Origin: Gammaproteobacteria bacterium
GTDB lineage: Bacteria > Pseudomonadota > Gammaproteobacteria > Nitrosococcales > Methylophagaceae
Reading direction: 5' to 3'
NCBI GenBank assembly: GCA_014859375.1
Contig: JACUUH010000001.1
Span: forward strand, 1 to 64,000
DNA length: 64,000 nucleotides
A model generated the notes under the pieces. That model saw only the letters and a list, made by a program, of their open reading frames with translations. It had not been told where the DNA came from and made no database searches. How positions within the stretch are numbered: position 1 is the first letter of the stretch; every line of letters begins with the position of its first letter. The translations under genes and the position numbers were made by a program. Of this stretch, positions 22,750 to 55,098 are shown one piece after another.

Positions 22750-24945
22750 GTGGAAAATCATTTTATTTTAACCGCAGAAGAATACACCAAAACAAGAGAT
22801 TTAAATATAGTAGGTAACTATATTGAGGATGCCGCATTATTTCTTCACAAAAGAACAGGTAAACCTTTAGAACAATGTAAAGATTATGTCGTAAAGGTAA
22901 CTGGTGTAAATGGTAAGTATAGGTTACAAGACCCTGATGTGTTATCTTTAACTAAACATACGCCTGGTAATAGAGAGAAGGAAGTTATACCCTTTTCATT
23001 ATACCTTAAAGAAGTTGTTGAAGGAGATATGGTTATTTCACCAACCATGGCGGTATATGTACCTGCCAAGGTGAAGGTTTCTATCCTTTCTGAATTTATC
23101 GACAATAACATTAAAAGACGTAGTAAATCTAAGAAAGAAATGTTCGCTGCAAAAATGAGACACGATGAGTTACTAGAGACATTTAAGAATAACGAGCAGA
23201 CGTCCTTTAAGATTTCTAACAACTCGCTATCCGGCGCACAGGCTTCTACAGGTACTATCCTCTATAACAAGTCAGCTCACTCTACTTTAACGTCTACTTG
23301 TAGGACAGCTACTAGTTATGCCAATGCCAATAATGAAAAGTTCTTATTTGGTAATAGACATTACTGGAATCCGGATATAGTCAAGAATAACATTATCTCT
23401 ATTGTTAGAAATACTGACTATGTTTCATTAACGAAGACTTTAGAAACCTACGGCATTGTTCATCCAACAGTTGAACAAACAATGGATTGCATTACCTACT
23501 CTACCGACCTATATTGGAAAAGAAGCAAGAAGGTAATAACTGAAATAGAGCAATTGGTTAGAGGGTTAACCGATATAGAAAGAAGCGCTTTTGTTTATAC
23601 GGGTGACTTCTATCACTTAGCTAAGTATAATCCTGAAATCATGAGGGAGTTTCTTACACGTATAACTATCAAAGATACTTCCATTGTTGATAATCCCACA
23701 GGTTACTTAGATGAGTTAAATGAAGATTCGTTAGCATACGTTTCTCTTTTATGCGCTAAAGAAATTAATGGACGTCCTTTGTTTGAGGTGTTGGGTAAAA
23801 AAGAAGATGTCCCTAGGGATGATGTTACTGTTAACATTCTAGGTGCAACCGCTAAAAATTTAATAAATACCTTGAACCATTATCAATACCTTATTAAAGG
23901 GTTATGGAGAGTTAGATCTTTACCGGCGTCGGTGGCTAATATTAGAAGTAGTTTAAGAAGAGGTGTAGTAACCTCAGATACAGACTCCACTATTTTCTCT
24001 ACTCAATATTGGACAGAGTGGTATGTAGGTAAAATAGACTTTAGCGAACAATCTAAAGCTGTCTCCTACGCCATGACTTATTTAGTAACACAAAACGTGG
24101 CGCATATCCTTGCTACTATTTCAGCTTCAATGGGTGTTGATGAGAAACAAATGTTTAAGCTGGCTATGAAAAACGAATTTGCGTTTCCGGTGTTTGTACT
24201 AACATCCATAGCTAAACATTACTTTGCATTCATATCGGCTCAAGAAGGTAACGTATACAAAGAAATGGATATGGAGGTTAAGGGTGTTCAGTTAAAGGAT
24301 TCCAATATACCGCCACACATCATGGAAGCTTTTAAGGAACGTCTAAAGGATATAATGACTTCTGTAATGGAAGGTAAAATGTTAAGCATAGAAGACCTTA
24401 AGAAAAGAGTTTCTACCATCGAGTACGATATTATTAACTCAGTTAAAAGAGGGGATTCTAGATATCTAACAGGAACTAACATTAAAGAGAAAGGTTCTTA
24501 TGTGAATCCTTTGAGTTCACCGTTTGCACATTACTTAATGTGGCAGGAAGTATTCGCACCAAAGTATGGTGATGCACCAGAGCCACCTTACCAAGCCGTT
24601 AAGGTATCTGTGGAGTTAGATAATAATACTAAGTTAAAACTTTGGTTAAATGGACTCACCGACGTAGGTGTTAGAGATAGAATGGAGAGCTATCTAAAGA
24701 ATAGTAAGAAGAATGGTGTTAAGACGCTAATACTACCTAGGTCACTCATTGAGTCTAATGGGATACCAGATGAGATTATTAGTGCTATGAATATCAGAAA
24801 ACTTGTTTATTCTTGCGTTAGACCTTATTATCTTTTAATGGAATCTTTAGGGTTTTATATGGTCAATGATAATCTTACTAAACTTGTAAGTGATCTAGTA
24901 CCTCCTTATTCCGAAGAAGAACTTAATATGCTAGATAGGAAATAA
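22750..24945 (+). CDS. family-B DNA polymerase, C-terminal part (motifs B and C)
   Basis: KNNEQTSFKISNNSLSGAQAS resembles the polB motif B region (KxxxNSxYG); VVTSDTDSTIF resembles motif C (YGDTDS). No exonuclease motifs. GTG at 22750 preceded by GGGAGA is the likely start; the track ORF starts at 22717. Confidence 0.75.
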   Translation: MENHFILTAEEYTKTRDLNIVGNYIEDAALFLHKRTGKPLEQCKDYVVKVTGVNGKYRLQDPDVLSLTKHTPGNREKEVIPFSLYLKEVVEGDMVISPTMAVYVPAKVKVSILSEFIDNNIKRRSKSKKEMFAAKMRHDELLETFKNNEQTSFKISNNSLSGAQASTGTILYNKSAHSTLTSTCRTATSYANANNEKFLFGNRHYWNPDIVKNNIISIVRNTDYVSLTKTLETYGIVHPTVEQTMDCITYSTDLYWKRSKKVITEIEQLVRGLTDIERSAFVYTGDFYHLAKYNPEIMREFLTRITIKDTSIVDNPTGYLDELNEDSLAYVSLLCAKEINGRPLFEVLGKKEDVPRDDVTVNILGATAKNLINTLNHYQYLIKGLWRVRSLPASVANIRSSLRRGVVTSDTDSTIFSTQYWTEWYVGKIDFSEQSKAVSYAMTYLVTQNVAHILATISASMGVDEKQMFKLAMKNEFAFPVFVLTSIAKHYFAFISAQEGNVYKEMDMEVKGVQLKDSNIPPHIMEAFKERLKDIMTSVMEGKMLSIEDLKKRVSTIEYDIINSVKRGDSRYLTGTNIKEKGSYVNPLSSPFAHYLMWQEVFAPKYGDAPEPPYQAVKVSVELDNNTKLKLWLNGLTDVGVRDRMESYLKNSKKNGVKTLILPRSLIESNGIPDEIISAMNIRKLVYSCVRPYYLLMESLGFYMVNDNLTKLVSDLVPPYSEEELNMLDRK

Positions 24946-24952
24946 AGAAAAT

Positions 24953-24982
24953 AATACAAGGAGGGTTTACCCTCCTTGTATT
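24953..24982. terminator. bidirectional terminator
   Basis: AATACAAGGAGGG-TTTA-CCCTCCTTGTATT. Confidence 0.8.
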
Positions 24983-26070
24983 TATAAGTACTCTTCTATT
25001 TCTTCTTTTAAAAAGTTTCTAACGTACTTGGCAAGTTCAGAAGAACCCATCTGCTCTAATCCCTTATCAGATCTCAATCTTCTCAGACTTTTGGTTATTG
25101 TATTAATTTCCATTTTGTTCTGATAAGTATTGGTTCTTTCATTCCAAAGTAATAACATTGCTATTAACTCTAACCTCGATAAAGTTAACGCCCAATTGAC
25201 CTGTCTGGTAAAAGGCATTTGAGGTATTTCCATTACTTGGCGGATAGAACTAGCTAACACTCCTTCTATAGCTTCAATAACTTCCTTAAAAGGTAAGTTC
25301 TTATCAAGGTAGGTGTGTAAGACAGTTTTAACGCTGTTAATTAAATTACTTTGATAGGTATTCATGTAGAATGGATGGTTATCCTTAGCTTCTTTAATTT
25401 CTTCACCATTAAATATCTTTATAAACATATTTAGGTAGGCAACATCTAAGAATGATCTTAAAGAGTTAGGTAGTAAGTATCCAGCTATGAATTGTCTGGT
25501 AGTTCTAGGGTTATCTGAATTTTCTAATAACTCTCTTTTTCTCCACAGGTGATACATTATACCTAACATAGGTAAGTTAATTAGTATAACTGACAACCCT
25601 TGTTCATCTGAATACTCTTCGCCCATCGGTAAATTTAAAGTCATGTCAGACTTAGGGTGTTTAAGAAATCTAATAGGCGATAGGTTTTCCCAGTTAGAAG
25701 TAATAGCGTGTAGTTCAAACTCCTCTTCCGTGAGTATGATAATTTCTTCGCTATCTTTACCTAAGAATATACCGGGGCTAAAAACAGACCCCGTGGTGTA
25801 AGATGAAGTGAACTTAAAATGTCTAGATAACTCAGAGGTATAATCGGATAACATGTCTCGATATTGTAACAGACTATTGTCTTCTATGTTAGGTAGCGTA
25901 TGTAACAATCTCACAAGTAGGTGATTGGATCTTACCGCGTACCCAGAGTTTCTATAATAGTTTATGACACGTTCTAAATTATCACGTTGTTTATTCTTTA
26001 CGTAGTCTAACCTAGGGAATGATACTTGATGAACATTATATCCCAAAGGTTTATTAAATATAGTATACAT
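24982..26070 (-). CDS. hypothetical protein
   Basis: 362 aa ORF. Confidence 0.5.
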   Translation of the reverse strand: MYTIFNKPLGYNVHQVSFPRLDYVKNKQRDNLERVINYYRNSGYAVRSNHLLVRLLHTLPNIEDNSLLQYRDMLSDYTSELSRHFKFTSSYTTGSVFSPGIFLGKDSEEIIILTEEEFELHAITSNWENLSPIRFLKHPKSDMTLNLPMGEEYSDEQGLSVILINLPMLGIMYHLWRKRELLENSDNPRTTRQFIAGYLLPNSLRSFLDVAYLNMFIKIFNGEEIKEAKDNHPFYMNTYQSNLINSVKTVLHTYLDKNLPFKEVIEAIEGVLASSIRQVMEIPQMPFTRQVNWALTLSRLELIAMLLLWNERTNTYQNKMEINTITKSLRRLRSDKGLEQMGSSELAKYVRNFLKEEIEEYL

Positions 26071-26175
26071 GAATTGGCCTTTTAATATCTTTGTCTATAG
26101 GATGAAAGCTTTAAAAGTCTGTATATGTAAAAAAATACTTTATATACTTAATACTATAGAAAGGTTATCTTTCCT

Positions 26176-26200
26176 ATTGAGTAGCGCTTAGCTACTCAAT
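26176..26200. terminator. hairpin ATTGAGTAGC-GCTTA-GCTACTCAAT upstream of chmA
   Basis: Perfect 10-bp stem in the intergenic region between divergent genes. Confidence 0.4.
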
Positions 26201-26234
26201 TGCAGTAGATTATAAACCTAATTTAAAATATTTT

Positions 26235-26262
26235 TAAACACATATTACTTATTTGAATGAGT
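26235..26262 (+). promoter_or_regulatory. early-like promoter element (CATATTACTTATTTGAATGA) upstream of chmA
   Basis: CATATTAC at 26241-26248, TTGAATG spacing as in other copies. Confidence 0.55.
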
Positions 26263-26332
26263 GCAGGTATTAATTTGCAGCATTCTTTTTCGAAAAAGTA
26301 ATGTAAAACCAAAAACCATGAAGGAGTAATAC

Positions 26333-28228
26333 ATGGCAGTTAAAGACAATAGCGGTTTCGCTGAACAATTGCACAACGCGGCATCTTCTGCAGCCCCACA
26401 AGAGGCTCCGCAGCAGCCACGCGCTAACCAACAGACTCAGTCTCAGGGTCGTGTTAACGGTGCTCATAGGTTGAGTGAGATCAACTCAGTACTACGTCGC
26501 CCGATCAGCCGTAGTTCTGGATCAGAAGTGGTAAACCGCTTCGCTGAAAGCTTCAAACAGTTGTTAGGTACTGATAACGTGGATTACCAAATCCACACCA
26601 TGGATAATAACAACGTAGTTATTGGTCCAATGTCTTTGATCCTAGTAACTATGAATGTTACTTCAGGTGGTAAGAAGTATGTGATGACTTACACGTTAAT
26701 CGTAGAAGGTTCAGGTGATCGTCTAGCACCACGCTTGATCCCTATCGACCAGAACGGCGTACGTCGTCAAATCGAAATTGTGACAACTCCTTCAGAGCTT
26801 TACTCTGCTTCAATGGTTGCGAAAATCGAAGCATACCTAAAAGGCAAGTTAGGTACTAACGATGTAGTAATCGTTGATGCTGGTCTAAGTGTCATTCCTT
26901 CAGAAGTAGATTCTGAAGACTTAGAAAAAGCTCGTTTAGTATTGTTCAACGCCACTGGTGCCTTAATGTCTACTGTGGAAAATATCTTCCCAGAATACAA
27001 GATGGCATTCAACATTGGTATGGTACAAAATGGCCAAGAAAAGTTAACTACTCGTGTTGACTATCACCGTAGTCAGAAGGCCGATTACTACGGCATGCCG
27101 GTGCGTAGCGATATTAGCTTACAGCTAAGCGCTTCAATCAACGATCAGTCAAATGACATTGAACACCAGCAGAACCGTAACATCCTAGAAGTTTCTGGGT
27201 TTGTTGACTTGTTGTATGCACCAGCGCCTAAGCAAAACCCTAACCCTTACTACCAGGGTCAAGTAGATACAACTATTTACCAACCACGTTTTATCATCAC
27301 TCGTTCTGATACAATGATTGATGCTAACACTATGGAACTTCAGTTGTTAGGTCTAGCTCAAGCGCAGGTTATTGCACATCGTCAGTGGGCATGGACTTTC
27401 AGTCCTAACCATGCGGCTAAAGGTATTGATATCACAGATATCGGCGCAGTTGGTTATGAAGATGAAACATTGATTACAGACAAAGGTCGTCAGCGTATTG
27501 ATACTAAAGCTAAAGCATTCGGTCCTGCTGAATTCCAGGCTCTTATTGGTGCTTACTTGAAACCTGATCTTGTATACTCAATGGATATCCAAGAAGGCGG
27601 TGATCTTTCATGGTTACTAGACGTATTAACTGCTGCAGCTTCTGGTGATCACCCTGCTTACGAACATATCGTTGAAGCAGCTGATAACTTAACCGGTGGT
27701 TTGTTCAGTCAAGAACTAACTCACATTTCAGGTGCTGGTCAATTCCTACATCCTAAAGTTGATCGCGTACCTATGGGTTATTACATGACCGATGGAGTTA
27801 TGCGTGATATCCGTGATGTGGATTACCTAGCAGTACTTAACATGTTTGGTAAGTCTGACATTGATACAGTGGTTAAATGGTCTGAAGCTTCTAACAACCC
27901 GAATATCCCAATGGAAATTCGTTTGGAAGAACAGATGAAAATCATTGAAGCTGTTACAGGTCGCCCAGTAATCAAAGCTTACGCACAACGTGTAACTTTT
28001 GGTGCTACCTTCCTATCAGCATTGGTCAATTCATGTACTAAAGCAGGTCTAATGATTAACCTATCTAACCCAGCTGGCGATTTCATTCCGCAGTCACAGC
28101 GTGTTGGATTCGATTCAAGCTACTACTCAACCGCTGCTGTAAACACCGGTTTTGTACAAGCTCCAGGTCAAGGTTATGGCGTAGGTGGCAACCGCCAGTA
28201 CAACCGTACTCGTTGGGGTCAGTTCTAA
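26333..28228 (+). CDS. chmA: chimallin-like phage nuclear shell protein
   Basis: 631 aa, Q/A-rich disordered N-terminus. Immediately upstream of an RNAP beta-prime gene as in phiKZ gp54-gp55; CGT-rich, high-expression-type codon usage. Confidence 0.75.
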   Translation: MAVKDNSGFAEQLHNAASSAAPQEAPQQPRANQQTQSQGRVNGAHRLSEINSVLRRPISRSSGSEVVNRFAESFKQLLGTDNVDYQIHTMDNNNVVIGPMSLILVTMNVTSGGKKYVMTYTLIVEGSGDRLAPRLIPIDQNGVRRQIEIVTTPSELYSASMVAKIEAYLKGKLGTNDVVIVDAGLSVIPSEVDSEDLEKARLVLFNATGALMSTVENIFPEYKMAFNIGMVQNGQEKLTTRVDYHRSQKADYYGMPVRSDISLQLSASINDQSNDIEHQQNRNILEVSGFVDLLYAPAPKQNPNPYYQGQVDTTIYQPRFIITRSDTMIDANTMELQLLGLAQAQVIAHRQWAWTFSPNHAAKGIDITDIGAVGYEDETLITDKGRQRIDTKAKAFGPAEFQALIGAYLKPDLVYSMDIQEGGDLSWLLDVLTAAASGDHPAYEHIVEAADNLTGGLFSQELTHISGAGQFLHPKVDRVPMGYYMTDGVMRDIRDVDYLAVLNMFGKSDIDTVVKWSEASNNPNIPMEIRLEEQMKIIEAVTGRPVIKAYAQRVTFGATFLSALVNSCTKAGLMINLSNPAGDFIPQSQRVGFDSSYYSTAAVNTGFVQAPGQGYGVGGNRQYNRTRWGQF

Positions 28229-28258
28229 TCTTAGCTAAATAATTTTAGTTAAGTGAGA

Positions 28259-28292
28259 TGTACAGAGGGGCTTAACAGCCCCTCTTTTTTTT
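28259..28292 (+). terminator. intrinsic terminator after chmA
   Basis: AGAGGGGC-TTAACA-GCCCCTCT followed by T8. Confidence 0.8.
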
Positions 28293-28318
28293 ATACCCAA
28301 CCTAGGAGATTTCTTAAA

Positions 28319-29566
28319 ATGGGTGTATATTTAAAATTAGTGAATCATGACCAACTCTTTTCAGAGTCTAAGTCACAACAACACATAGTTAACTACTACG
28401 ACCTTAGTAATAAGACACAGATGGATGAGTTGAATAACATCATCTTTACTTCTTATAACCAAGACTCGTTAGAGATTTTACCTACTTGCGACTGTGGTGC
28501 CCTTAAAGGCACTTATAACGTTGGTTTGAAATGTAGTGACTGTAACACTGAATGTTTACCGGTAACAGAACGACCTTTAGAATCAGTATTGTGGATAACA
28601 ACCCCTCAAGGTGTTGATACATTAATAAACCCTGAAGTATGGATTATCTTGCAAAAGAAATTCATGGACGGTGGCGTTAATGTATTGGAGTGGTTAACTA
28701 ACCCTAGATACAGAGTATCTGAAGAACGTGAGCCAGTGAGTATAAAGAAGTTGAAGCAAAGAAATGTAGGTAGAGGGTTAAATCACTTCTATCAAAATTT
28801 CGATAGTTTAATGAAGTTGTTAATTGACGATAAAATAATTAAACTTGGCAATCAACAAGATAGAGATGACTTAAAACTTTTCCTAAAGGAAAATAGAGAA
28901 GCTATTTTCTCTAAGTACATCCCTATTCCCTCTAAGATGGCTTTCATTACAGAAAGTTCAGCAATGGGTACTTACGCTGACCCTAACATGTTACCAGCTA
29001 TTGATGCTGTAAGAACGATTAGTTCTATTGAGAACGGTGTTAAATCATTGAATGATAAGACACGAGAAGTAAGAACTGTTCAAGCTATTCAAAAGTTAGC
29101 TGAGTATTATGAAACCTTTTACGGTAAACCTATTGGTCATAAATCAGGATGGTTCAGAAAACACATTTACGGTTCGAGAACTCACTTTAGTTTCCGTGCT
29201 GTAATTGCATCGTTAACTGATCCACACGACTATGATGAAGTGCATTTACCATGGGGTATGGCGGTGATGTTTTTAAGCATTCATTTGATCAGTAAACTTC
29301 TAAAAAGAGGGTTTACTCCTAATGAAGCTAAAAGGCATATTCATGAACATACGTTGAAATACGACATTCTCTTAGATGAGTTATTTCAAGAGCTAATAGC
29401 TGAATCGCCATATAAGGGTTTACCTATTATACTCCAACGAAATCCTTCATTGACTAGAGGTTCTGCTCAACAGTTGTTTGTAACTAAGATTAAAACAGAT
29501 CCAAACATTAATACTGTTTCAGTTTCTGTATTAATCCTTCCGGCGTGGAACGCGGATTTTGATGGT
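28319..29566 (+). CDS. non-virion RNA polymerase beta-prime-like subunit, exon 1 (phiKZ gp55-like)
   Basis: CDCGALKG...CSDC zinc-finger-like N-terminus; ends in the catalytic motif AWNADFDG. ATG 28319 has AGGAG upstream; the track ORF starts at 28253. Confidence 0.8.
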
Positions 29567-30955
29567 AGATAACATTGCCTTCGTTAAATCTCTCTAATTG
29601 CGGGAAATCCCTTAGAGCTTAATGATACTACTTACAGGTAGCAATACACTGTAATACTTACCCCAGTAATGGAAGTGGTAAGCATAGTAAAAACTCATTA
29701 AGATTGGGTGATCGGCGCAGCGAAGCTTCCCATAGGGAAGTGTGTTCAACGACTAGTGCTATGCACGTAGGGTACCAAGTGGACCCGAAACGGGAGACAC
29801 TCTTAAGAGTGAAGATATAGTCTCAACCGGTATGAAAGTATCGGAAGTTAACAACTGGACATTGTTAACGGTCGGAGTAACGTCCGATAGTCAATTATTC
29901 GTAATATTATTTAAAAAGGCAAAAAAAAATGGATCTAAAGTTAATACCAGATACTTTAGGTTTTTTAGCAGATGGTAAAGGAGGTATATATTCACCCGAC
30001 GGATCTCGTAGAAATACTTATGAGAATTTAGACGGGTACATTACAGCTTCAGTTAAGCATAAAACCTTAGGGTGGAGGACTTTTGGTGTCCATCGTTTAA
30101 CAGCCCTAGCCTTCCATCCTGTAAAAAATCCTGAAGATTTACAGGTTAATCACATTGATGGTAATGTTAAGAACAATGAAAAACATAATCTAGAATGGGT
30201 TAACGTCAAAGAAAATAACGTACATGCTTCAGTATTAAAAAGTAGTGGGAAAAGCAATAGAGTAAAATTATTATCCGAAAACGGAGAAGTAAGATTTTTA
30301 ATAGATTTAAAGGAAACAGCTGCTGAACTTGACGTAAGTGAGGTGGAGGTTTGGAATTCAATTAAGGAAAGAAAACCCTTAAAGGGGTTTGTAATTGAGC
30401 ACGCAGGTAAAAACATAACTAAAAGTAATGTCAAAGATAAGTATAAACCCTACTTAACTAAATTAAAGGCTAAATCGGTAGATACAGGTGAGGAGGTTTT
30501 ATTCGACGGGAATAGAGAAGCAGCCAAATACTTTAGAGTTAGCCGCCCTTTATTGGCACACATGATGTCGGACAACATTAGATTCAAATTACTTAAAGGT
30601 GAATGGTTAGTCGTTTATCAAGAACAGGATTATCCCGTTTACAATGAAGAAATGATAGAAGAGGCTAGATCCCATGGTAGAAAAGAAGTTTACGTCGTTC
30701 GTTTAAGGGACGGTAAAAAATTTATCTACCCCAGCGCGGCATCTTTTATACGTGACTTTAACTTAAGTAAAAAAGCTATCTCTACCAGATTAAAGAAAAA
30801 CAAACTAGAGGAAGTTTCCGGTTTCGTATTTCTATACTTTAACGATGTTAATGTGAAGTTAATTAAAGATTTCTTGGATGGTCCAGCTGAAAAGAAATAG
30901 TTAAAAAAGAATAATTGACGAATAAAAACGGTCTTTGACCGTACAATGAAAATTG
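29567..30955 (+). mobile_element. group I intron with HNH ORF, inserted in the NADFDG|D codons
   Basis: Candidate P1 GATGGT/GCCTTC; core landmarks AATTGCGGGAAA, GCAGCGAAGCTTCCCATAGGGAAG, GTTCAACGACTA, AAGATATAGTCT; exon 2 resumes in frame with DALNGML after AATTG. Confidence 0.8.
29929..30900 (+). CDS. intron-encoded HNH homing endonuclease (I-HmuI/NUMOD type)
   Basis: VHRLTALAFHPVKNPEDLQVNHIDGNVKNNEKHNLEWVNVKENNVHA HNH motif plus NUMOD-like repeats. Confidence 0.85.
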   Translation: MDLKLIPDTLGFLADGKGGIYSPDGSRRNTYENLDGYITASVKHKTLGWRTFGVHRLTALAFHPVKNPEDLQVNHIDGNVKNNEKHNLEWVNVKENNVHASVLKSSGKSNRVKLLSENGEVRFLIDLKETAAELDVSEVEVWNSIKERKPLKGFVIEHAGKNITKSNVKDKYKPYLTKLKAKSVDTGEEVLFDGNREAAKYFRVSRPLLAHMMSDNIRFKLLKGEWLVVYQEQDYPVYNEEMIEEARSHGRKEVYVVRLRDGKKFIYPSAASFIRDFNLSKKAISTRLKKNKLEEVSGFVFLYFNDVNVKLIKDFLDGPAEKK

Positions 30956-31129: not shown

Positions 31130-31179
31130 AAATGGAATAGGGAGACTTATCTAATGTATAAACAATTAAGGAGAGGGAA

Positions 31180-35250: not shown

Positions 35251-35330
35251 GGGCCCTTAGCTCAGCTTGGTTTTAGAGCAAACGACTCATAATCGTTAGG
35301 TCCACGGTTCGAATCCGTGAGGGCCCACCA
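35251..35330 (+). tRNA. tRNA with CAT anticodon (Met, or Ile-2 if lysidinylated)
   Basis: GGGCCCT...AGGGCCC acceptor, AACGA-CTCATAA-TCGTT anticodon arm, CACGGTTCGAATCCGTG T-arm, encoded CCA. Confidence 0.9.
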
Positions 35331-40957: not shown

Positions 40958-40990
40958 TAATTACATACTATCATAATGTCTACAGTAGAT
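40958..40990 (+). promoter_or_regulatory. promoter-like element TTACATACTATCATAATGTCTACAG
   Basis: CATACTAT at 40964-40971, as upstream of 36189. Confidence 0.45.
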
Positions 40991-41014
40991 AAACACAATT
41001 ATAGGAGTACAACA

Positions 41015-42220
41015 ATGGCAAATGAACTCAGACCAGAGTTTCTGTCTATCAACTCGTTAAACCCCTGGACACAACACGACAGTAGTCCACGGGGTTACAT
41101 GTTCTCTGCCTCGCATATTGCACAGGCTTTAGTAATCGACGGTGCAACACCAAGACGTTGCCAAACAGGTACTGAGAGAGAATTTGGGAAGTATACCTTT
41201 AATATTAAATTCCCATACGATTCTCAGATTATTAAAGTCATCCCTAAATACCGACACACATTAGGTAATGACAACATCAAGGATAATCCTGCGACATTAA
41301 TTATTTACGAAAGAGTAGATACTAAAGAAGTTGGTATTGTGGAAATGATTCGACATTCAACTGCCGTGGATGTTAAACACCAGCATTTCGGATTTAGATA
41401 CAAATATAAATCTATTGCCGAAACTATATCTGAAGGTATGGTTGTGCATGGTGGTACAATAATAGCAGATTCTCCATCAATTGACGATGCAGGTAATTAT
41501 AATTACGGAGTCGAATCAAACGTTGCTTTTATGTCTGTACCGGGTATCATTGAAGATGGTGTAGTGGTTTCAGAGTCTTACCTTAAGAAGATCTCTTCAA
41601 AAGGTTTTGAGAAACGAGTAACATCGTGGGGTAAGGAGTATTATCCTCTAAACTTATACGGTGATGTTAATAACTATAAACCCTTCCCTGACATAGGTGA
41701 TAGAATCAGAGATGATGGCTTGCTATTTGCCTTAAGATCATACGATGATTTATTAGGACCGGTGGAGATGAATAAAGCATCTTTACAATCACCTGACTAC
41801 GTATTTGATAAGTTAGTCTATGCTAAACCAGGTGCAAAGGTAGTTGACGTTGCTGTTCACCACGATACCATTAATCGTAATCCTCCTACACCAGTGGGTA
41901 TGGAAGTACAGGTGGATAAATACCACCAGGCAATGGTGAGATATTACACTACCATTCTAGAAACTTATAATGAGCTGCATAGAGTTAGAAAGGATTCATT
42001 GGTAGTAACTCCTGAATTTCATAGACTTGTTGTGGAGGCTGTGGGGTATATAGGCCTGGACGGTAATCCATTAACAAAACACTTGAAAAGTAAGGATGTG
42101 GTTAAACGTCGAGTTCAAAAACTTCATAGAAGAAAAGAAATTGATGACTGGCGCGTTGAAGTAACTTTTGAGTACGATGTATCACCCGTTGACGGTTTTA
42201 AAATTACAGATGCGCACGGT
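41015..42220 (+). CDS. non-virion RNA polymerase beta-like subunit, exon 1 (phiKZ gp71-like)
   Basis: Beta C-terminal-half features: VPGIIEDGVVVSESY, HRRKEIDDWRVE, DGFKITDAHG. ATG 41015 has TAGGAG upstream. Confidence 0.8.
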
Positions 42221-43412
42221 GGTTAGAAACAATTTGAGTTTCTACTTAGGATAAATATGCTAAGTGATCTTCAATTTGATTTTGACAAAAAATGGATGGA
42301 ATTAATTGAGTTGTATCAATTTCCATTCGATAGATTACCCAGTGTAAATCCAAATAACATTGTTTTTACACAACCTGTACCCAGATTAAAATCAAAACCA
42401 GTACCATGGATGATTTTTAATAAACCAATAATGGTTAATTTGAAGTACAGACTTATTCCAAACTTTCCCTTCAACGCCATATGCAAGAAAGGTGAAGTCA
42501 TCTCAATAGTTACTGGTAAAATACTTCCAGTTAGTATTTATCACGAATACCCAACTGTTGAGGTTTATGACCCACTAAGTTTGCGGCACCGCAGTGTTAA
42601 GTTACACAGACTCTTAGCTTTGGCTTGGATTAAAAATAATATTCCTTGGGAAAAACCGTATGTTAATCATAAAAACGGTAACAAGGTAGATTATAGACTT
42701 TCTAATCTAGAGTGGTGTTCTTCATCGGAGAATGCAACGCATGCTATTAAACATGGGTTAAGAAAAGATAACTTTACATGTACGGTAAAGAATATAGAAA
42801 CAGGGGAAAGTGTCGATCTTGAATCTATTAGAAACGCCTGTCGTTTCATGGGTATTAGCGAAGACACTCACTTCAAAGATTTACAACGTTGGATGGAACG
42901 AGATGGTTCCATATGTGGAAAATACACGATTACTAAACACAGCTCTAAAAGCGGTGTTAAGAATGAAGGGTTTAGGGTAACTGCTAAGAGTGACAAAGAA
43001 ACTTTAGAGTTTAATTCACTTAGGAAAGCCGCTACACATTTTAACGTTGATAGATCTGTTATTCGAGACGGTAGAGTTTGGAAAGGGTATAAATTGTCAA
43101 TATATAGCCCGACCGTGTAGTGATACACGGTTGAAACTTCTCTAATTGCTGGAAACTCCCGTTAGGGTTAACGTAGGATACTGAGCTGTAAAGACTCAGC
43201 GACCCCTGAAAATCGTTAACATAGGGACAATCAGCAGCGAAGCTTCCCATAGGGAAGAACGTTCAACGACTAAGACATTTACCAGTCTGTACATCCAAGT
43301 GGATGGAAACGGGAAGGCACTTTATTGTAAAGTGTAAGATATAGTCTGTTCTACATGGAGACATGTAGCGTGTGCACGTAATGGTGCGGGTGAGAAGTAA
43401 CGAATCTCATTG
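42221..43412 (+). mobile_element. group I intron with HNH ORF, between HG and NKKKGV codons of the beta subunit
   Basis: Core landmarks AATTGCTGGAAA, GCAGCGAAGCTTCCCATAGGGAAG, GTTCAACGACTA, AAGATATAGTCT, as in the 29.6 kb intron. 5' splice site inferred from protein alignment logic and may be off by a few nt. Confidence 0.75.
42257..43120 (+). CDS. intron-encoded HNH endonuclease (phiKZ gp72-like position)
   Basis: [49 protein letters not shown]. Confidence 0.8.
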
Positions 43413-44327
43413 AACAAAAAGAAAGGAGTTATCGTAGGTGTGTGGCCAGATGAAAAGATGCCTGTTGACAGAAATGGCAACAGAGCTGAAATTATCATGG
43501 ATGGTGACGCCACTATTAAACGTATGAATATTGGTCGTCTTTATGAACAATGGTTAAACGCATGTTCAAGAGACGTTACAAATAGAGTACGTGACATGGT
43601 AGAGAACGATCATAAAAATGGATGGCAACAAGCTTATGATTATTTGTTGGGGTATTATGAAATTTGCTCTCCAAGAATGAGGGCTCTATTTGATAAATAT
43701 CCTAAACCTAAACAACATGTGGAGGAAATTCTTAAAGATGGTGTTTACCTTTGGCTACCGACAGATAATCCTCGAGATAGCATGGAAGCTATTAAGATGT
43801 TAAAGGATGGTCCATACGCACCAACCTTTGGTCCTGTTACTTATGCTGAGGGAGTAGTTACGGATAGAAACGTATTAATAGGTAGTTTGTACATAATGCT
43901 CTTAGAGAAAACTGGCTCTGATTGGTCTGGCGTATCCTCAGCTAAACTTCAACATTTTGGTATTCCAGCCAGAGTTTCTAACAGTGATAAGTATTCTAGT
44001 CCAGGTAGAAACCAACCCGTGCGTATTTTAGGTGAGTCTGAAGTGCGTCTATTAAACTCGGTCATAGGTTCTGATACAACTGTGGATATGTTGGATCAAT
44101 CCAATTCTCCAACTACACACAAGTATATCGTTAATAAGATCCTTAGATCAGATCAACCCACAAACATAGATGTAATGGTTGATAGAAAAGAAGTCCCTCT
44201 GGGTAATGCTAGATCTAACTTATTTGTCAAACACATCATGGAATGTGGTGGTGTCAAATTTGTCAGAGAGATAGATGACCCTATCAGAGCGCAGGATGTT
44301 GAAAACCAATTAAAAGGTAAGGGGTAA
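43413..44327 (+). CDS. non-virion RNA polymerase beta-like subunit, exon 2 (phiKZ gp73-like)
   Basis: NKKKGVIVGVWPDEKMPVDRNGNRAEIIMDGDATIKRMNIGRLYEQW matches beta-subunit GNKGV...MP...RMNIGQ. Confidence 0.8.
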   Translation, partial: NKKKGVIVGVWPDEKMPVDRNGNRAEIIMDGDATIKRMNIGRLYEQWLNACSRDVTNRVRDMVENDHKNGWQQAYDYLLGYYEICSPRMRALFDKYPKPKQHVEEILKDGVYLWLPTDNPRDSMEAIKMLKDGPYAPTFGPVTYAEGVVTDRNVLIGSLYIMLLEKTGSDWSGVSSAKLQHFGIPARVSNSDKYSSPGRNQPVRILGESEVRLLNSVIGSDTTVDMLDQSNSPTTHKYIVNKILRSDQPTNIDVMVDRKEVPLGNARSNLFVKHIMECGGVKFVREIDDPIRAQDVENQLKGKG

Positions 44328-47914: not shown

Positions 47915-47939
47915 CTTTAACTATTCATAGGGGTTAACT

Positions 47940-48380: not shown

Positions 48381-48412
48381 AGTTAAGACCGGGTTAATGC
48401 TCGGTCTTAACT
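48381..48412 (+). terminator. hairpin terminator
   Basis: AGTTAAGACCG...CGGTCTTAACT. Confidence 0.6.
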
Positions 48413-48455
48413 ATATTTATTCGTTTTATAATTAGAAAAAAGAAGGTACTTGTAA

Positions 48456-48677: not shown

Positions 48678-48754
48678 ATATTCTAAATGATGGAAGCGCG
48701 TGATCGCATTCTATCTGATATTGAGACCGACTAAATAATAAAAGGAAATAAAAA

Positions 48755-49231
48755 ATGAGCAAGATTTTAAACAAAGAAGTTATGCATGTAGAAATGTCTG
48801 ATCGCTACCACACATCATCGGAAGGTGTGGTGAGTCACATAGGGTCGGTTATGACATTTTTAATTTACGATAAACCACATACGGGCATAAAGCCTATGGT
48901 GAATACCATTGCCAACGTCATACCCACAATGTCCACAGGTGATATGCTTCGGGTTAGATTCTCTGATTATCCATTGTCCTTTGAGATTACATTAACTGGT
49001 ATTTTAGTGACTGATCGAGATGATATTGCTGAACCGGTACTATTTGTTTATTGCGAAGATAACTATGATGATTGTCCATCACTACCTAACTTAACTGACT
49101 ACGGTGTCTGCTATGAAGATTATCTGGTACAGGAGCTAGGTGCTCTTAGCTTCGAACATTACTTCTTTAAGAATTTAGCGACGTCAACCAATTTTGAGTT
49201 ATTACGCAAGTTTCATAACCTATTCCGTTAA
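48755..49231 (+). CDS. hypothetical protein
   Basis: 158 aa ORF. Confidence 0.5.
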   Translation: MSKILNKEVMHVEMSDRYHTSSEGVVSHIGSVMTFLIYDKPHTGIKPMVNTIANVIPTMSTGDMLRVRFSDYPLSFEITLTGILVTDRDDIAEPVLFVYCEDNYDDCPSLPNLTDYGVCYEDYLVQELGALSFEHYFFKNLATSTNFELLRKFHNLFR

Positions 49232-49244
49232 TTAATTACTACAG

Positions 49245-49292
49245 GGAAAATGAGTCTTAAAGACTCATTTTCCTATAACTATTTTTTTTTTG
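49245..49292 (+). terminator. intrinsic terminator
   Basis: GGAAAATGAGTCTTAAAGACTCATTTTCC then T10. Confidence 0.8.
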
Positions 49293-49297
49293 CATTT

Positions 49298-49335
49298 AAC
49301 TCTAAGTCAACGCCATATTACTTTATTGATAATAA
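49298..49335 (+). promoter_or_regulatory. early-like promoter element (CTAAGTCAACGCCATATTACTTTATTGATAATA)
   Basis: AAGTCAAnnnCATATTAC; CATATTAC at 49314-49321. Confidence 0.55.
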
Positions 49336-49355
49336 AAGGTTAGCAGGAGGAAATC

Positions 49356-49664
49356 ATGCAAGTCATAACCTTAAAGGCGAACTTGTATCTGGTATTAGAT
49401 ACCGGATCGCCTATCGTTAAAAACACCGTAGATGCTTGTTCTAAAAAGAGCTACATGGTGTTCAAACCAGTAACCAGAGCCCTCTTTGAAAGGGCGGCAA
49501 CGGTGCGGTGGGAGTGCGCGCGCGCCCAATATCGAGAGGTATTGGAATTATTAACAGTAGATAAAGAGCATGTCACCGTAGTTGTCGATAAGAATGACAA
49601 CGACCTTTATGCTCTTTATCTTGGTCTTAACTCTAACAAGAACGTTAGAGTGATTTTAAAATAA
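49356..49664 (+). CDS. hypothetical protein
   Basis: 102 aa ORF, GCAGGAGG RBS. Confidence 0.6.
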   Translation: MQVITLKANLYLVLDTGSPIVKNTVDACSKKSYMVFKPVTRALFERAATVRWECARAQYREVLELLTVDKEHVTVVVDKNDNDLYALYLGLNSNKNVRVILK

Positions 49665-49685
49665 AAAAAAAATAGGAGATTTATC

Positions 49686-50177
49686 ATGAGTGCATTAAAA
49701 ATTGTAGCGGGTGTAGTAGGTGCCATTACAGTGGGGGTCGCTGTTGGTTACATAACGGTAAAAAGAAAAAAGAAAAAAGAAGAGCAAAACAAACCATCCA
49801 AAAACGAATGGGTCTTTGGGCTCGTTGACGAGGTGGTTAACAACCCACCTTCACTCAAGGAGCAGTCAGACGCCAATGAAACGGCGTTTGAATACCTGTT
49901 CACCGTCGCTCCAGAACATTGGGCGGTGGGGTCTGACTGCTCACTAGTGGAGTTCTCCACTAGTGAGTGTGGAGACGACACGTCTGAGTTTTATGCCTCC
50001 GGTACATGCGGGGGTAAACGGTTCTTGGCCGTGGCGAACACACTAAATAACAGATATGTCATTTACGGTGAAGACTCAGGTTGGTTAAACCTTCCTGAAG
50101 GTTACAATGAAGACACACCCTTGGGTGTCTTCTTTAGACCTCCAGTGGAGGAGGACAATGCCGTTAAAGTAGATTAG
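49686..50177 (+). CDS. single-TM protein with soluble C-terminal domain
   Basis: MSALKIVAGVVGAITVGVAVGYITVKRKKKKEE N-terminus resembling the 429-617 ORF. Confidence 0.65.
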   Translation: MSALKIVAGVVGAITVGVAVGYITVKRKKKKEEQNKPSKNEWVFGLVDEVVNNPPSLKEQSDANETAFEYLFTVAPEHWAVGSDCSLVEFSTSECGDDTSEFYASGTCGGKRFLAVANTLNNRYVIYGEDSGWLNLPEGYNEDTPLGVFFRPPVEEDNAVKVD

Positions 50178-50185
50178 GTTATAAT

Positions 50186-50218
50186 ACAGCAAGGGGCTTC
50201 CCTTGCTGTATTTTTTTT
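50186..50218 (+). terminator. intrinsic terminator
   Basis: TACAGCAAGGG-GCTT-CCCTTGCTGTA then T8. Confidence 0.8.
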
Positions 50219-50289
50219 GTTTAATATAGTAACTTTTTTAGTTTTTTAATATTATGACCTTTTTTAACAGGATACTAATAGGAGAGAAA

Positions 50290-51318
50290 ATGTCGCTATT
50301 AAAGAAATATGCAACGGTGGAAGAAACAGTCGGAGAATCAACACAAAAGGTTGAAGGTATACTGTCGATAGAAACTACACTAAAAACTAATGTATTAGAA
50401 ACAACTGATGTATCTACAGAAGGGTTAATAGATAATATAAAAACCTGGTGGCAGACATCCAAAGATAAAGCGGCGGCTAAAACCACCAATTGGAATAACT
50501 ATAAAGAAAACTTAACCGATATAGAAACTAGGTTATCACTTATAGAGAAAAGTCTTAAGGGCAGTAAGTACGAAGGTAGTTGGACTTTTGACATTACTCC
50601 TTACTTTACGACTTTTTATATAAATAAAGAAAATGTTTGGCTAAACGATTTTGTTACCTTGCTGAAAAAAGAATTGAAAAGATCTAATGACTTTAGTACT
50701 AAAGTGCACAAAGAGTCTGTCAAAGCTTTAAAGGAAATGGCGGTTAAGGGTAAGAAAGTAAACGTAGACAGTACTGTAGAAGATTTTGATAAGAGCATCG
50801 AACCTATATTAAAAATAAAAAGACCTAATGTCTTAGTGCCTAGAGAGTATTTTAAAGACGGTCAGTTCTTTAGAGCTAAAGAAATAGCGGCTGGAAAACA
50901 CCCTGGTTCAGTAACGTTAATGGTAAATGCCGAAGGTCCTAAGTTTACTACCTTAGCAAAAAAACAGGATAAAGCTAAAAGAGAAGTTACTTTAACTATT
51001 AAGTCGGTCATGGAGATGATCTCCTACATCAAACCTTTACTTAAAAATTTAGACACTTATCATACCGATGATGATATTTTTGTTAAAAGCTTTAACGAGG
51101 CATATTTAGTATTTGATACCATATTAGATGACCTAAGTAGCGCTTCCTTTAAACCAGTGGAATCAGATAACTTAACTCCTTATTTTAGAGCTATGATTTC
51201 ACATAAGGAATTTATAGACCTTATTGAATATAATGATAATATCATAACCCTAGCTGGTCTAAAGTTGGTTATAAATACTCTAGAACGGTTTGCTAAACAT
51301 GTCAATGATAATTCGTAA
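50290..51318 (+). CDS. putative inner-head/inner-body-like virion protein
   Basis: MSLLKKYATVEETVGES... with STEG-type candidate cleavage site; helical, Lys-rich. Track ORF starts at 50254; ATG 50290 has GGAGAG. Confidence 0.45.
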   Translation: MSLLKKYATVEETVGESTQKVEGILSIETTLKTNVLETTDVSTEGLIDNIKTWWQTSKDKAAAKTTNWNNYKENLTDIETRLSLIEKSLKGSKYEGSWTFDITPYFTTFYINKENVWLNDFVTLLKKELKRSNDFSTKVHKESVKALKEMAVKGKKVNVDSTVEDFDKSIEPILKIKRPNVLVPREYFKDGQFFRAKEIAAGKHPGSVTLMVNAEGPKFTTLAKKQDKAKREVTLTIKSVMEMISYIKPLLKNLDTYHTDDDIFVKSFNEAYLVFDTILDDLSSASFKPVESDNLTPYFRAMISHKEFIDLIEYNDNIITLAGLKLVINTLERFAKHVNDNS

Positions 51319-51326
51319 GGTGTTAA

Positions 51327-51662
51327 ATGAAGATAATGTTAAAAGTTAGATCTAATCTTGATCGAATGAAAAATAGATTAGCTTGTATTCACCTGGTGCC
51401 AGTCAACGGTAAAGATGACGTTCTTATAGGTAGATACATCAGTCATGGTCTTTGCCCCAATGGTAGATTACTTATAGATGTCATAACAGAGAAAGGTCAT
51501 GGTAGAGGTTATCTAAAAACCAAAGGCGAATTTGATTATGTAGAAATCAATGAGTTTGTCCAAAAGGAACATTTTGATTACTCAATGCTTGAGAAGTATC
51601 ATGAAATGCCTTTAAGACTCAAAACAGTTTTAACTTATAGTCTTATTAGACTAAAACAATGA
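51327..51662 (+). CDS. hypothetical protein
   Basis: 111 aa ORF. Confidence 0.5.
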   Translation: MKIMLKVRSNLDRMKNRLACIHLVPVNGKDDVLIGRYISHGLCPNGRLLIDVITEKGHGRGYLKTKGEFDYVEINEFVQKEHFDYSMLEKYHEMPLRLKTVLTYSLIRLKQ

Positions 51663-51678
51663 TTGAAGGAAGTAATGC

Positions 51679-51969
51679 ATGCAAAACATCCTAGGTAAAT
51701 ATACGGAAGCTAACGTATCTCAAGAAGAAGGTAAAGAAAATCCTTTGGAAGAATTAGTTGATAAAACTGAGTATCATGTTTTTAAAGGGACTAACCGAGT
51801 GGTTTGTTGCTTGCATTTAAAAAAAGGTGGTTCTGTCATTGCTGTCTCTGATGCACCAGTGGAAGATGATTTCAATGAAGATGTAGGTAAAAGCATAGCG
51901 CGTGATCGAGCAATGGATCAGCTATCCATGATGGAGAACTATGCTAAAAGTAAAGGGTCTAGTAAGTAG
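51679..51969 (+). CDS. hypothetical protein
   Basis: 96 aa ORF. Confidence 0.5.
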   Translation: MQNILGKYTEANVSQEEGKENPLEELVDKTEYHVFKGTNRVVCCLHLKKGGSVIAVSDAPVEDDFNEDVGKSIARDRAMDQLSMMENYAKSKGSSK

Positions 51970-51998
51970 ACAGTTAAGTAAAAAAAGGAAATAAAAAA

Positions 51999-53192
51999 AT
52001 GAGTTTATTACAGAAGTATAATGTAGTGGGTGAACCTACGGTAGAGAGTTTTTTAGAGAATTTGGATCAAGTTGTTCATAAACTAGAAACCTCTTCTAAA
52101 CATATGACTATTTTAGACGCAGAGATAGCTAGAATAGAAGGTTTGGAAGCTAAAGGAGTGACTGTTTCTGTTGAGGATGCTTCTTCTGAGTTACTGGAAG
52201 TAGTTAGATGTCTTTCAAACGAGATTGATCTTGAATCTTTAGGTATTGAAGACGAAGTCGGTGGACATAGCGATCTTTTAAAGAGATTGTTAGATGGTGT
52301 AATTCAGGACAAAATAAGAACTATTAATTTATTTCTCGACGTCTTTAAAAGTTGGCCAAGTATGGCTAAGAAGTATAAAGAAAAGCTTACAGGTCAGAAA
52401 AATAAACTAAAAAATATAAACAAAGATGTAAATTTTAAATCCCATATAACAACCGAATCAATTGCAAGAATTTTCCTTAAGGCGAAAGGTAAAAAATGGG
52501 AGATGTCGGACTCTATTGTTCAAGACATTTCAGATTTAAATAATTTGGCAGATTTTTTTATTAACGATTATCATCCTAGGGTATCGTCGATTTTATTAGA
52601 CGCCGTTGGACTTTTAGACAAAATTAGTAAAGATAATACCGACGCTAATGAAATTTTGAAAAAATTTCTATCATCCACACCTAGTTTGGATAAAATAATA
52701 CCTAAAAAATACTTGACTACATTTATATCAGGTACCGAGTTAAAAATAGAAGATAAATCTGAAAGTATTTTGGGTAAATTAGGATTACAGAAAGGTAAAG
52801 AAGTAAAATTCACATCAGCTTCCGAGGGGTTTTTTAAAGACGCGTTTAAACTTTATAAATTAGAATACCCTGACGTTAGAATGAGTTATAAAGAATTATC
52901 CGATTTAATAGACGAATCTGAAAAAACGTTAACTATAATTGAAGAAACCATGGGTGTGAGTAAAGGGTTTGAGGAAATTAATAAAAGAATAGACGTAGCG
53001 TTAAACAAACATCTCAAAGGTCTTGAAGGTGTCTCCGACATCGACGCAGATACTTTAAAGGGCTTAGGGGAAATATTGAAAGACTTATCGACCAATGCCA
53101 TTAAACCTATGATTAGTATATCAAAAACTATTATTTTGACCAATAGTCAAACTTACATGTTAACTGACAGCCTCTTAAAAAACCCCGAGTAA
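51999..53192 (+). CDS. putative inner-head-like virion protein, paralog of the 50290 ORF
   Basis: MSLLQKYNVVGEPTVESFLENL... shares the N-terminal MSLL[KQ]KY..V pattern and helical Lys-rich character. Confidence 0.45.
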   Translation: MSLLQKYNVVGEPTVESFLENLDQVVHKLETSSKHMTILDAEIARIEGLEAKGVTVSVEDASSELLEVVRCLSNEIDLESLGIEDEVGGHSDLLKRLLDGVIQDKIRTINLFLDVFKSWPSMAKKYKEKLTGQKNKLKNINKDVNFKSHITTESIARIFLKAKGKKWEMSDSIVQDISDLNNLADFFINDYHPRVSSILLDAVGLLDKISKDNTDANEILKKFLSSTPSLDKIIPKKYLTTFISGTELKIEDKSESILGKLGLQKGKEVKFTSASEGFFKDAFKLYKLEYPDVRMSYKELSDLIDESEKTLTIIEETMGVSKGFEEINKRIDVALNKHLKGLEGVSDIDADTLKGLGEILKDLSTNAIKPMISISKTIILTNSQTYMLTDSLLKNPE

Positions 53193-53199
53193 TAATATA

Positions 53200-53355
53200 A
53201 TGTCCAATTGGAACCCAGAATTTACAGAAGCGCAACGAAATAAGAATTTAAAACGATTGTCTAAATTTAGTGAAGTATCCTTGGAAGCTATTCCTTCTAT
53301 ACTTAGTTGTACAGAAGATTATTACGGTATGGATAATCCATCAATTAGATGGTGA
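53200..53355 (+). CDS. small hypothetical protein (51 aa), absent from the ORF track in this frame
   Basis: MSNWNPEFTEAQRNKNLKRLSKFSEVSLEAIPSILSCTEDYYGMDNPSIRW; weak RBS. Confidence 0.4.
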   Translation: MSNWNPEFTEAQRNKNLKRLSKFSEVSLEAIPSILSCTEDYYGMDNPSIRW

Positions 53356-53365
53356 ACAAAAAAAT

Positions 53366-53398
53366 AATAGAGTAGAGGGTTTCCCCCTCTACTCTATT
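53366..53398. terminator. bidirectional terminator
   Basis: AATAGAGTAGAGGG...CCCTCTACTCTATT. Confidence 0.8.
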
Positions 53399-53406
53399 TA
53401 TAACGT

Positions 53407-55098
53407 TTATGCTACGTTTTCAGTATCTTTAATAAACTCTTCAAGTAATGTGTCGAACTTTGGAGCTTTAAAGATGTTACAGGCTATCTCTACTGCGTTA
53501 ACTGGTCCACCTGTAAGGTTTATACCAGTGAACCTCTGAACTTCCTCAGGCACGCCTCTAATTCTACATAACTCACGATAAGTAGTTTCCTTAGACATAT
53601 TCAAGAATACTTGAGTGGAAGGGTAACTACTACTAACGTCTAAGTCAGCAACGTGTGTGAATATAAGCGTAGATAAATCTGGAACTTCTCTAACTACCTT
53701 AACACCGTTGTGTAGCGCTAAGTGAGCAGGTAACGTTATAATCCAATTTCTCATTGATACAACATGCTTATCTAAATCATCCACCATGTCATCGGATGCA
53801 GCAGCTACCACCAAACCTTTCTCTTCACAGAAAACATTTAATTGATCCACTAATCGTTTAGGTTGAGAATCAAATATGTAAAATTCGGAAATACCGGATA
53901 GAACAGTTATTGTCACAGCGAGATCTTTAACTTTCTCATCGAAAAGTTCAACACCTATGCAGTCAAATAAGTTATATACCCCATATTCAACTTTATACTT
54001 ATCCTGCATTATTACGTGCCAGGCTAAGCCTTCATGATCTTTAGCCTCTTCAAACTTTAACTTACGCACACCTAAATGCTTATTTAATTGGAAATCTAAA
54101 CTATAAGACGTATCATTAGATCCAGCTAAGCGAACCCTCTTATAAGTACACATAGAGTCAATCAACATAAAACTTGCTGGACACATAGCCTTATGCCATC
54201 GGTCAGCAGGATGTATAGGTGTTATGAGACCAGACGCTGTGACCTTCTGACTTTTACCTTGCATATATTTAAAGAATCTATACTCGGGTGGGACTATTGG
54301 ATCGCTAAAGACCTCAGCTGGATCATAACCACCATTCTTTAAACATTCTACAATTTTGGGTATATCGAAATCTATATTCCATATTGTTAAGAAATCAGGT
54401 TGCCATTCATGAGCTCTAGCTATAACCTTGGCACAGGCCTCCGCTGCCGTATCACATATCAACACCTCTAAATTAATGTTTCTAGACTTCATGTACTCGC
54501 CTAGTAACTCATCTGTCTTTTTTCTCAACTTGGCTTCAAAGTTAGTATCACCGTCGATAAACTCTTTTGTAACTGCGAGAACAGCTTTATCTTTAAACGT
54601 TATAGTTACATATATCGGTCTACCATGACCGTGTACTACATCTGTTTCTATATCTAGTACAGCTACCGAGTTCTCACTGAAAGCATCGGGATATCTTTCT
54701 CTATATTTTTTCTTCATTAATGTTGCAGGGGAAATGTCTGTACCGTAAAGATAAGGGCTTCTAGCCAAAGTCTTAAGTCCACCTTTAGCACCAGGTCTAC
54801 CTAACGCTCGACCTATTGATCTTAGTAAATTATTCTGGGTAGTGGTGAATTTCTGTAACTTTGTTACTTCTTCCCATTCTTTCTTATCTTTATGTTTTTG
54901 AAACCCTGGTTTAGTCACGTAGAAATCACGTTTAAAGTTTTTCAACATAACCATATTAGGAATTTTTCTACCATCTTTGGTGTGAATAACTTCTTTAATG
55001 ACTAAAAGATCATCGTAGCTACCATTGTTAGCTTTGCAATAATTAACATGTTTACATTCAAGAGCTTCTATTTGTTCTTTAGATACTGGTCTAACCAC
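53407..55098 (-). CDS. family-B DNA polymerase, N-terminal part (exonuclease + motif A)
   Basis: Exo I AVLDIETD, Exo II TIWNIDFDIP, Exo III-like YNLFDCIGVE, motif A HVADLDVSSSYPS; ends before motifs B/C. Confidence 0.8.
   Translation of the reverse strand: MVRPVSKEQIEALECKHVNYCKANNGSYDDLLVIKEVIHTKDGRKIPNMVMLKNFKRDFYVTKPGFQKHKDKKEWEEVTKLQKFTTTQNNLLRSIGRALGRPGAKGGLKTLARSPYLYGTDISPATLMKKKYRERYPDAFSENSVAVLDIETDVVHGHGRPIYVTITFKDKAVLAVTKEFIDGDTNFEAKLRKKTDELLGEYMKSRNINLEVLICDTAAEACAKVIARAHEWQPDFLTIWNIDFDIPKIVECLKNGGYDPAEVFSDPIVPPEYRFFKYMQGKSQKVTASGLITPIHPADRWHKAMCPASFMLIDSMCTYKRVRLAGSNDTSYSLDFQLNKHLGVRKLKFEEAKDHEGLAWHVIMQDKYKVEYGVYNLFDCIGVELFDEKVKDLAVTITVLSGISEFYIFDSQPKRLVDQLNVFCEEKGLVVAAASDDMVDDLDKHVVSMRNWIITLPAHLALHNGVKVVREVPDLSTLIFTHVADLDVSSSYPSTQVFLNMSKETTYRELCRIRGVPEEVQRFTGINLTGGPVNAVEIACNIFKAPKFDTLLEEFIKDTENVA

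What the first reader, a model, noticed from the sequence alone, without database searches (positions are those of the whole stretch)
22750..55098. Family-B DNA polymerase split into two distant genes on opposite strands
Seen: the 53407-55098 (-) product carries Exo I (DIETD), Exo II (NIDFDIP), an Exo III-like YNLFD and motif A (DLDVSSSYPS), then stops. The 22750-24945 (+) product has a motif B-like KISNNSLSGAQAS and a motif C-like SDTDST, with no exonuclease. Together they make one complete polymerase, broken between motif A and motif B. The halves are about 28 kb apart and antiparallel, so trans-splicing or intein explanations are not obvious and the enzyme would be heterodimeric. I recall divergent or split replicases being discussed for phiKZ relatives; novelty must be checked.
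Basis: partly seen in the sequence, partly recalled or inferred. Interest (0 to 1): 0.75.

Follow-up and report, generated by a model that had tools for sequence, protein, structure and literature searches.

The report
Known two-gene jumbo-phage DNA polymerase
This nucleus-forming (phiKZ-like) giant phage makes its DNA-copying enzyme from two proteins encoded about 28 kb apart; the split is real and striking, but it is a published, family-wide feature of these phages rather than something new.

Summary
The window is the first 64 kb of a 209-kb contig of a chimallin-encoding (phiKZ-type) jumbo phage. The 53407-55098 (-) product carries Exo I/II/III and motif A. The 22750-24945 (+) product carries motif B, motif C and KxY. 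Mapped on RB69 gp43, the first ends its homology at residue 434 and the second begins at 455, so together they make one T4-like family-B polymerase cut between motifs A and B. The catalytic residues checked are invariant in 34 and 39 relatives. No other PolB, PolA or DnaE was found on the contig.

The split is not new. Papers call it the 'split subunit DNA polymerase' of phiKZ-related phages, credited to Cornelissen et al. 2012 (phage OBP). About 270 phage records hold each half. Bacillus AR9 and Staphylococcus S6 have the same cut, suggesting an ancient split. The antiparallel layout is common (30 of 39 tabulated); phiKZ itself has both halves on one strand.

Best model (physical complex inferred): an obligate heterodimer whose palm metal site is shared, D487 from the N-half and D410/D412 from the C-half. 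Possibly worth bench work: family-specific extra sequence at both new termini, and a ~195-residue insertion between motifs B and C.

The parts
53407..55098 (-). N-terminal half of split family-B DNA polymerase: N-terminal domain, 3'-5' exonuclease (D149, E151, D245, D379) and first part of palm with motif A (D487)
53410..53568 (-). C-terminal tail of the N-half after the last RB69-alignable residue (P0001 511-563); helical; candidate contact with the C-half
   Evidence: contact role inferred
22750..24945 (+). C-terminal half of split family-B DNA polymerase: fingers (R124, K128, K154, N158), rest of palm (D410, D412), thumb region (KxY K489/Y491)
22750..23031 (+). N-terminal head of the C-half before homology to RB69 resumes (P0002 1-94); candidate contact with the N-half
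   Evidence: contact role inferred
23236..23949 (+). About 195-residue largely helical expansion between motif B and motif C (P0002 ~163-400) relative to RB69 gp43
22632..22661 (+). Terminator-like hairpin just upstream of the C-half gene, suggesting a separate transcription unit
   Evidence: consensus match only
26333..28228 (+). Chimallin (phage nuclear shell protein), marker of the family and syntenic neighbour of the C-half
   Evidence: PF25677 E 7e-55; phrog_4795 E 1e-96

Best explanation
This is the split replicative DNA polymerase of a nucleus-forming (phiKZ-type) jumbo phage. Two separately encoded and translated proteins are the two pieces of one T4 gp43-like family-B polymerase, cut in the stretch equivalent to RB69 gp43 residues 435-454. 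They most likely assemble into an obligate heterodimer: the N-half gives the exonuclease and the first palm Asp (D487), the C-half gives the fingers dNTP-binding residues (R124, K128, K154, N158), the other palm Asps (D410, D412) and the thumb. Neither half has a complete polymerase active site. Extra family-specific sequence at both new termini probably helps hold the halves together. As in relatives, the enzyme would act inside the phage nucleus after import. Shown here: complementarity, conservation and family-wide pairing. Inferred: physical complex, activity and import.
For: Domain and motif matches; complementary RB69 mapping, N-half to 434 and C-half from 455; invariance of nine exo/motif A positions in 34 N-halves and eight fingers/palm/KxY positions in 39 C-halves; RB69 gp43 entries the top structural matches of both models; N-half folds well to about 430 but the motif-A palm piece 438-511 is low-confidence alone, as expected if it needs its partner; about 270 phage records contain each half at >=80% coverage; both halves in AR9, S6, phiKZ and EL; no fused form among the loci examined; no other PolB, PolA or DnaE on the 209-kb contig; published as split subunit polymerase; a RAY DNA polymerase (gp220) co-localizes with DNA in the phage nucleus.
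Against: No co-purification, co-fold or activity data were available here; the fold tool takes one chain only and forbids fused sequences. The C-half's global TM-score to RB69 is poor (about 0.2), partly because the palm is incomplete and an insertion is present. A low-confidence palm in the N-half could also reflect a shallow alignment (34 sequences).
Confidence: 0.93

Rival explanations
1. The halves are joined after expression by trans-splicing or by a split intein, giving one full-length chain.
For: Group I introns are common in these phages, in two RNA polymerase genes of this window and in the N-half gene of several relatives; LucasX DnaB is annotated as intein-containing.
Against: No Rfam intron match in or next to either polymerase gene in the window; no intein domain found by Pfam in either half; both genes have their own start codon, SD-like sequence and stop; both new termini carry extra sequence present across relatives, instead of intein or intron halves; genes lie on opposite strands in most relatives.
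Confidence: 0.02
2. The two proteins work separately: the N-half as a stand-alone exonuclease, the C-half as a polymerase-like or structural protein.
For: The exonuclease domain folds confidently by itself.
Against: Motif A is invariant in the N-half and motifs B/C in the C-half; a stand-alone exonuclease would have no need to conserve motif A, and the C-half alone lacks one carboxylate of the two-metal site; both halves are found together in the four whole records searched and in near-equal numbers of records.
Confidence: 0.04
3. Assembly or annotation artefact: one gene broken by mis-assembly.
For: The contig comes from a metagenome-style genome bin of 106 contigs.
Against: Same two intact ORFs and the same cut in many independently sequenced isolates including phiKZ, EL, VP4B, D3 and AR9, with gaps of 26-52 kb in 39 tabulated records and local gene order conserved.
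Confidence: 0.005

Closest known systems
Split subunit DNA polymerase of phiKZ-related phages (phiKZ gp050 + gp082; SPN3US gp18 + gp44; OBP, EL, PhiPA3, 201phi2-1)
   Same: Same two genes, same cut, same families (PF20286/phrog_2927 and phrog_3011), C-half close to the chimallin gene; N-half antiparallel and 26-52 kb away in most.
   Different: Sequence only: this phage is at most 47% (N-half) and 43% (C-half) identical to the best records in the phage collection. phiKZ itself has both halves on one strand.
Bacillus phage AR9 gp131 + gp151 and Staphylococcus phage S6 homologues
   Same: Same break between motif A and the fingers; the AR9 record notes a 'partial catalytic domain'.
   Different: About 20% identical; shorter B-C insertion; in AR9 both genes lie on one strand about 15 kb apart. 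AR9 motif A (DLSSLYPS) is more canonical.
T4/RB69 gp43 family-B DNA polymerase
   Same: Exo and polymerase motifs, order of domains; best sequence-profile match of the N-half and best structural match of both halves.
   Different: One chain; lacks the extra sequence at the break and the ~195-residue B-C insertion.
Synechococcus phage ACG-2014f gp43 (two adjacent CDS)
   Same: A T4-type gp43 also annotated as two ORFs.
   Different: Cut lies within the fingers rather than right after motif A, and the pieces are adjacent with two small ORFs between; looks like an independent event.
Split minimal PolIII-alpha of group 2.2 jumbo phages (PMC7824862)
   Same: A jumbo-phage replicase split into two distant genes.
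   Different: Unrelated (family C) polymerase fold.

Membership tests
Family-B DNA polymerase (gp43 type), as the sum of two chains | DEDD 3'-5' exonuclease motifs Exo I, II, III | tested here: met
   D149/E151, D245, D379 align with RB69 D114/E116, D222, D327 and are invariant in 34 sequences
Family-B DNA polymerase (gp43 type), as the sum of two chains | Motif A DxxSLYP | tested here: met
   D487VSSSY492P493 aligns with RB69 D411..Y416; invariant D, Y, P
Family-B DNA polymerase (gp43 type), as the sum of two chains | Fingers dNTP-binding residues and motif B KxxxNSxYG | tested here: met
   R124, K128, K154, N158 correspond to RB69 R482, K486, K560, N564; invariant in 39 (motif B matched by eye and by the Pol zeta alignment). 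The motif-B Tyr is replaced in the phiKZ group but kept in AR9 and S6
Family-B DNA polymerase (gp43 type), as the sum of two chains | Motif C DTDS and KxY | tested here: met
   D410/D412 and K489/Y491 align with RB69 D621/D623 and K706/Y708
Family-B DNA polymerase (gp43 type), as the sum of two chains | DNA polymerase activity | not testable with these tools
   needs purified proteins
Split DNA polymerase of phiKZ-type (chimallin-encoding) phages | Both halves present as separate genes with the break between motifs A and B | tested here: met
Split DNA polymerase of phiKZ-type (chimallin-encoding) phages | Chimallin, split non-virion RNAP and conserved gene order around the C-half | tested here: met
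   PF25677 and phrog_4795 at 26333-28228, RNAP subunits, SbcD-like protein, same order as in phiKZ, EL, VP4B, D3, LucasX, Caitlin
Split DNA polymerase of phiKZ-type (chimallin-encoding) phages | The two proteins form one complex | not testable with these tools

The most novel reading that the evidence does not exclude
An obligate heterodimeric family-B replicase whose two-metal active site is shared between two separately imported proteins, held by family-specific termini (53-residue tail, 94-residue head), with a ~195-residue phage-specific domain between motifs B and C that may serve as interface, processivity or import element. This biochemistry appears untested in the papers I could search.
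Probability: 0.6. Interest if true: 0.4.

Novelty: new member of a known kind. Interest (0 to 1): 0.2.

Why it matters
The split itself is known, so the discovery value is small. What remains open is how a replicase active site is built from two chains that must both reach the phage nucleus. The precise break (RB69 435-454), the invariant cross-chain catalytic set and the extra termini listed here make that testable. The same cut in AR9 and S6 points to one ancient event, so the two-chain polymerase is a useful marker for this whole branch of jumbo phages.

Tried and rejected
Trans-splicing and intein: no intron or intein signal at either gene. Full-length PolB elsewhere: none found. A further split of the C-half in Gram-positive phages, suggested by partial tblastn matches and the short phrog_1918, was rejected: AR9 gp151 and the S6 homologue are single ORFs aligning over the full length. 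Fused ancestor in IMG/VR: none among about 50 N-half and 80 C-half loci; one N-half ORF of 936 aa (L023) has an extra tail without an evident motif C. Direct phmmer against PDB with single sequences gave nothing significant; profiles were needed. Partner search in the IMG/VR contigs could not be run because those records are not held. Cornelissen et al. 2012 could not be read, so its claim is cited through later papers. The early expectation that antiparallel placement is special was rejected: 9 of 39 tabulated phages, apparently all close phiKZ relatives, have both halves on one strand. The paper search for the T4-like Aeromonas gp43A/gp43B split returned nothing usable, so I make no claim on it.

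Full report
What is there. The two reported ORFs are real. The window is the first 64 kb of contig C4, 209,130 bases long, in a 2.35-Mb genome bin of 106 contigs. The window encodes chimallin (26333-28228; PF25677 E 7e-55, phrog_4795 E 1e-96), several non-virion RNA polymerase subunits and an SbcD-like protein, in the gene order seen around the same polymerase half in phiKZ, EL, VP4B, D3, LucasX and Caitlin. It is therefore a phiKZ-type jumbo phage, by its chimallin gene expected to be nucleus-forming, that has been binned with a bacterial genome.

The halves. The N-half (53407-55098, minus strand, 563 aa) is phrog_3011 'DNA polymerase' (E 2e-208) and the C-half (22750-24945, plus strand, 731 aa) is PF20286 'Divergent Family B DNA polymerase' (E 5e-245) with a weaker PF00136 match. 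A profile of N-halves finds RB69 gp43 first in the PDB (E 4e-11), ending at RB69 432 just after motif A. A profile of C-halves finds the fingers/motif B region of Pol zeta and delta and the RB69 704-755 stretch. Profile-profile alignment places the N-half on RB69 106-434 and the C-half from 455 (the C-half pieces are individually weak, E about 3e-4 and 2e-3, but in the expected order). The break thus falls in RB69 435-454.

Catalytic set. By alignment and numbering, RB69 D114/E116/D222/D327 correspond to P0001 D149/E151/D245/D379; D411 and Y416 to D487 and Y492; R482/K486/K560/N564 to P0002 R124/K128/K154/N158; D621/D623 to D410/D412; K706/Y708 to K489/Y491. All of these are invariant in the 34 N-halves and 39 C-halves aligned. 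The roles of the RB69 residues (exonuclease metals, polymerase metals, dNTP triphosphate binding) are established knowledge of family-B polymerases, not tested here. Because the polymerase metal site needs the motif A and motif C carboxylates, and these lie on different chains, neither half should polymerize alone (inference).

Structure. AlphaFold2 models: the N-half has mean pLDDT 83.6, above 75 in nearly every block to about residue 430, but most of residues 438-511 including motif A are below 50. The C-half has mean pLDDT 87.0. For both, RB69 gp43 entries are the top matches in the PDB, although the C-half superposes poorly as a whole (TM about 0.2). The C-half has about 252 residues between motif B and motif C against 57 in RB69, a largely helical expansion of about 195 residues; AR9 has a shorter version. 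Both new termini carry sequence not aligned to RB69: 53 residues after the last aligned position in the N-half and 94 before the first aligned position in the C-half (89-184 residues across relatives). A role as inter-subunit contact is a guess.

How widespread. tblastn finds the N-half in 291 and the C-half in 289 phage records, about 270 of each with at least 80% coverage, nearly all phages of Gram-negative hosts. In 39 records where both positions were printed, 30 have the halves on opposite strands and 9 on the same strand; gaps run from 26 to 52 kb with median 35 kb; here it is 28.5 kb. Bacillus AR9 (gp131 and gp151) and Staphylococcus S6 have the same cut at about 20% identity. No fused ORF was seen among about 50 N-half and 80 C-half IMG/VR loci. 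[quoted passage not shown] no tree was built to test this.

Alternatives. No other family-B polymerase is detected in the whole bin, and PolA and DnaE lie on other contigs. No group I intron lies at either polymerase gene in the window, and no intein domain was detected. Each gene has its own SD-like sequence and start, and a terminator-like hairpin precedes the C-half. Trans-splicing, intein and artefact readings are therefore unlikely.

What is known. [quoted passage not shown] The PolB survey of 2020 treats the PhiKZ group as a divergent PolB cluster related to T4 gp43 (PMC7544198), and the jumbo-phage survey lists it as a group 1 hallmark (PMC7824862). RAY gp220 'DNA polymerase' co-localizes with DNA in the phage nucleus (PMC10299810). 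From gene order gp220 is probably the C-half (my inference). I found no biochemical study of the complex in the open papers searched, but subscription papers and preprints were not held.

Verdict. Observation confirmed, interpretation largely right, novelty not upheld. This is a new member of a known kind; interest is modest and rests on the untested biochemistry of a two-chain active site.

Noticed in passing
window 29500-29844 (+): Group I intron (RF00028, 80.8 bits) directly after the RNA polymerase subunit ORF 28253-29572, which matches only up to position 421 of 478 of its family profile; the last exon presumably lies after the intron.
   Followed up: partly
window 42227-43409 (+): Group I intron (RF00028 at 43032-43368, 85 bits) with an HNH/NUMOD endonuclease ORF (42257-43120); the ORF after it (43410-44327) matches only profile positions 403-692 of an RNA polymerase beta family, so the intron appears to interrupt that gene (first exon probably 40976-42226, not tested).
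   Followed up: partly
L014 391-696 (PhiPA3 085), L039, L040, L045, L048: Several relatives carry group I introns inside the N-half polymerase gene, at or shortly before motif A (PhiPA3 and L040 near residue 487; L039 has two); the PhiPA3 annotated CDS stops before the last exon.
   Followed up: partly
L023 2474-5281: N-half ORF of 936 aa with an about 370-aa acidic C-terminal extension of unknown nature.
   Followed up: no
L013 37461-39377 (phiKZ 082), L015 139-2268 (201phi2-1 gp144): N-halves of some Pseudomonas phages are longer (638 and 709 aa); in phiKZ the extra residues are an about 67-residue insertion before Exo III.
   Followed up: partly
L155 2680-5696: Synechococcus phage ACG-2014f gp43 is annotated as two adjacent CDS (491 and 389 aa) cut in the fingers, apparently an independent split at another site.
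   Followed up: partly
window 35251-35330 (+): Single tRNA-Met (CAT) gene within the phage region.
   Followed up: no
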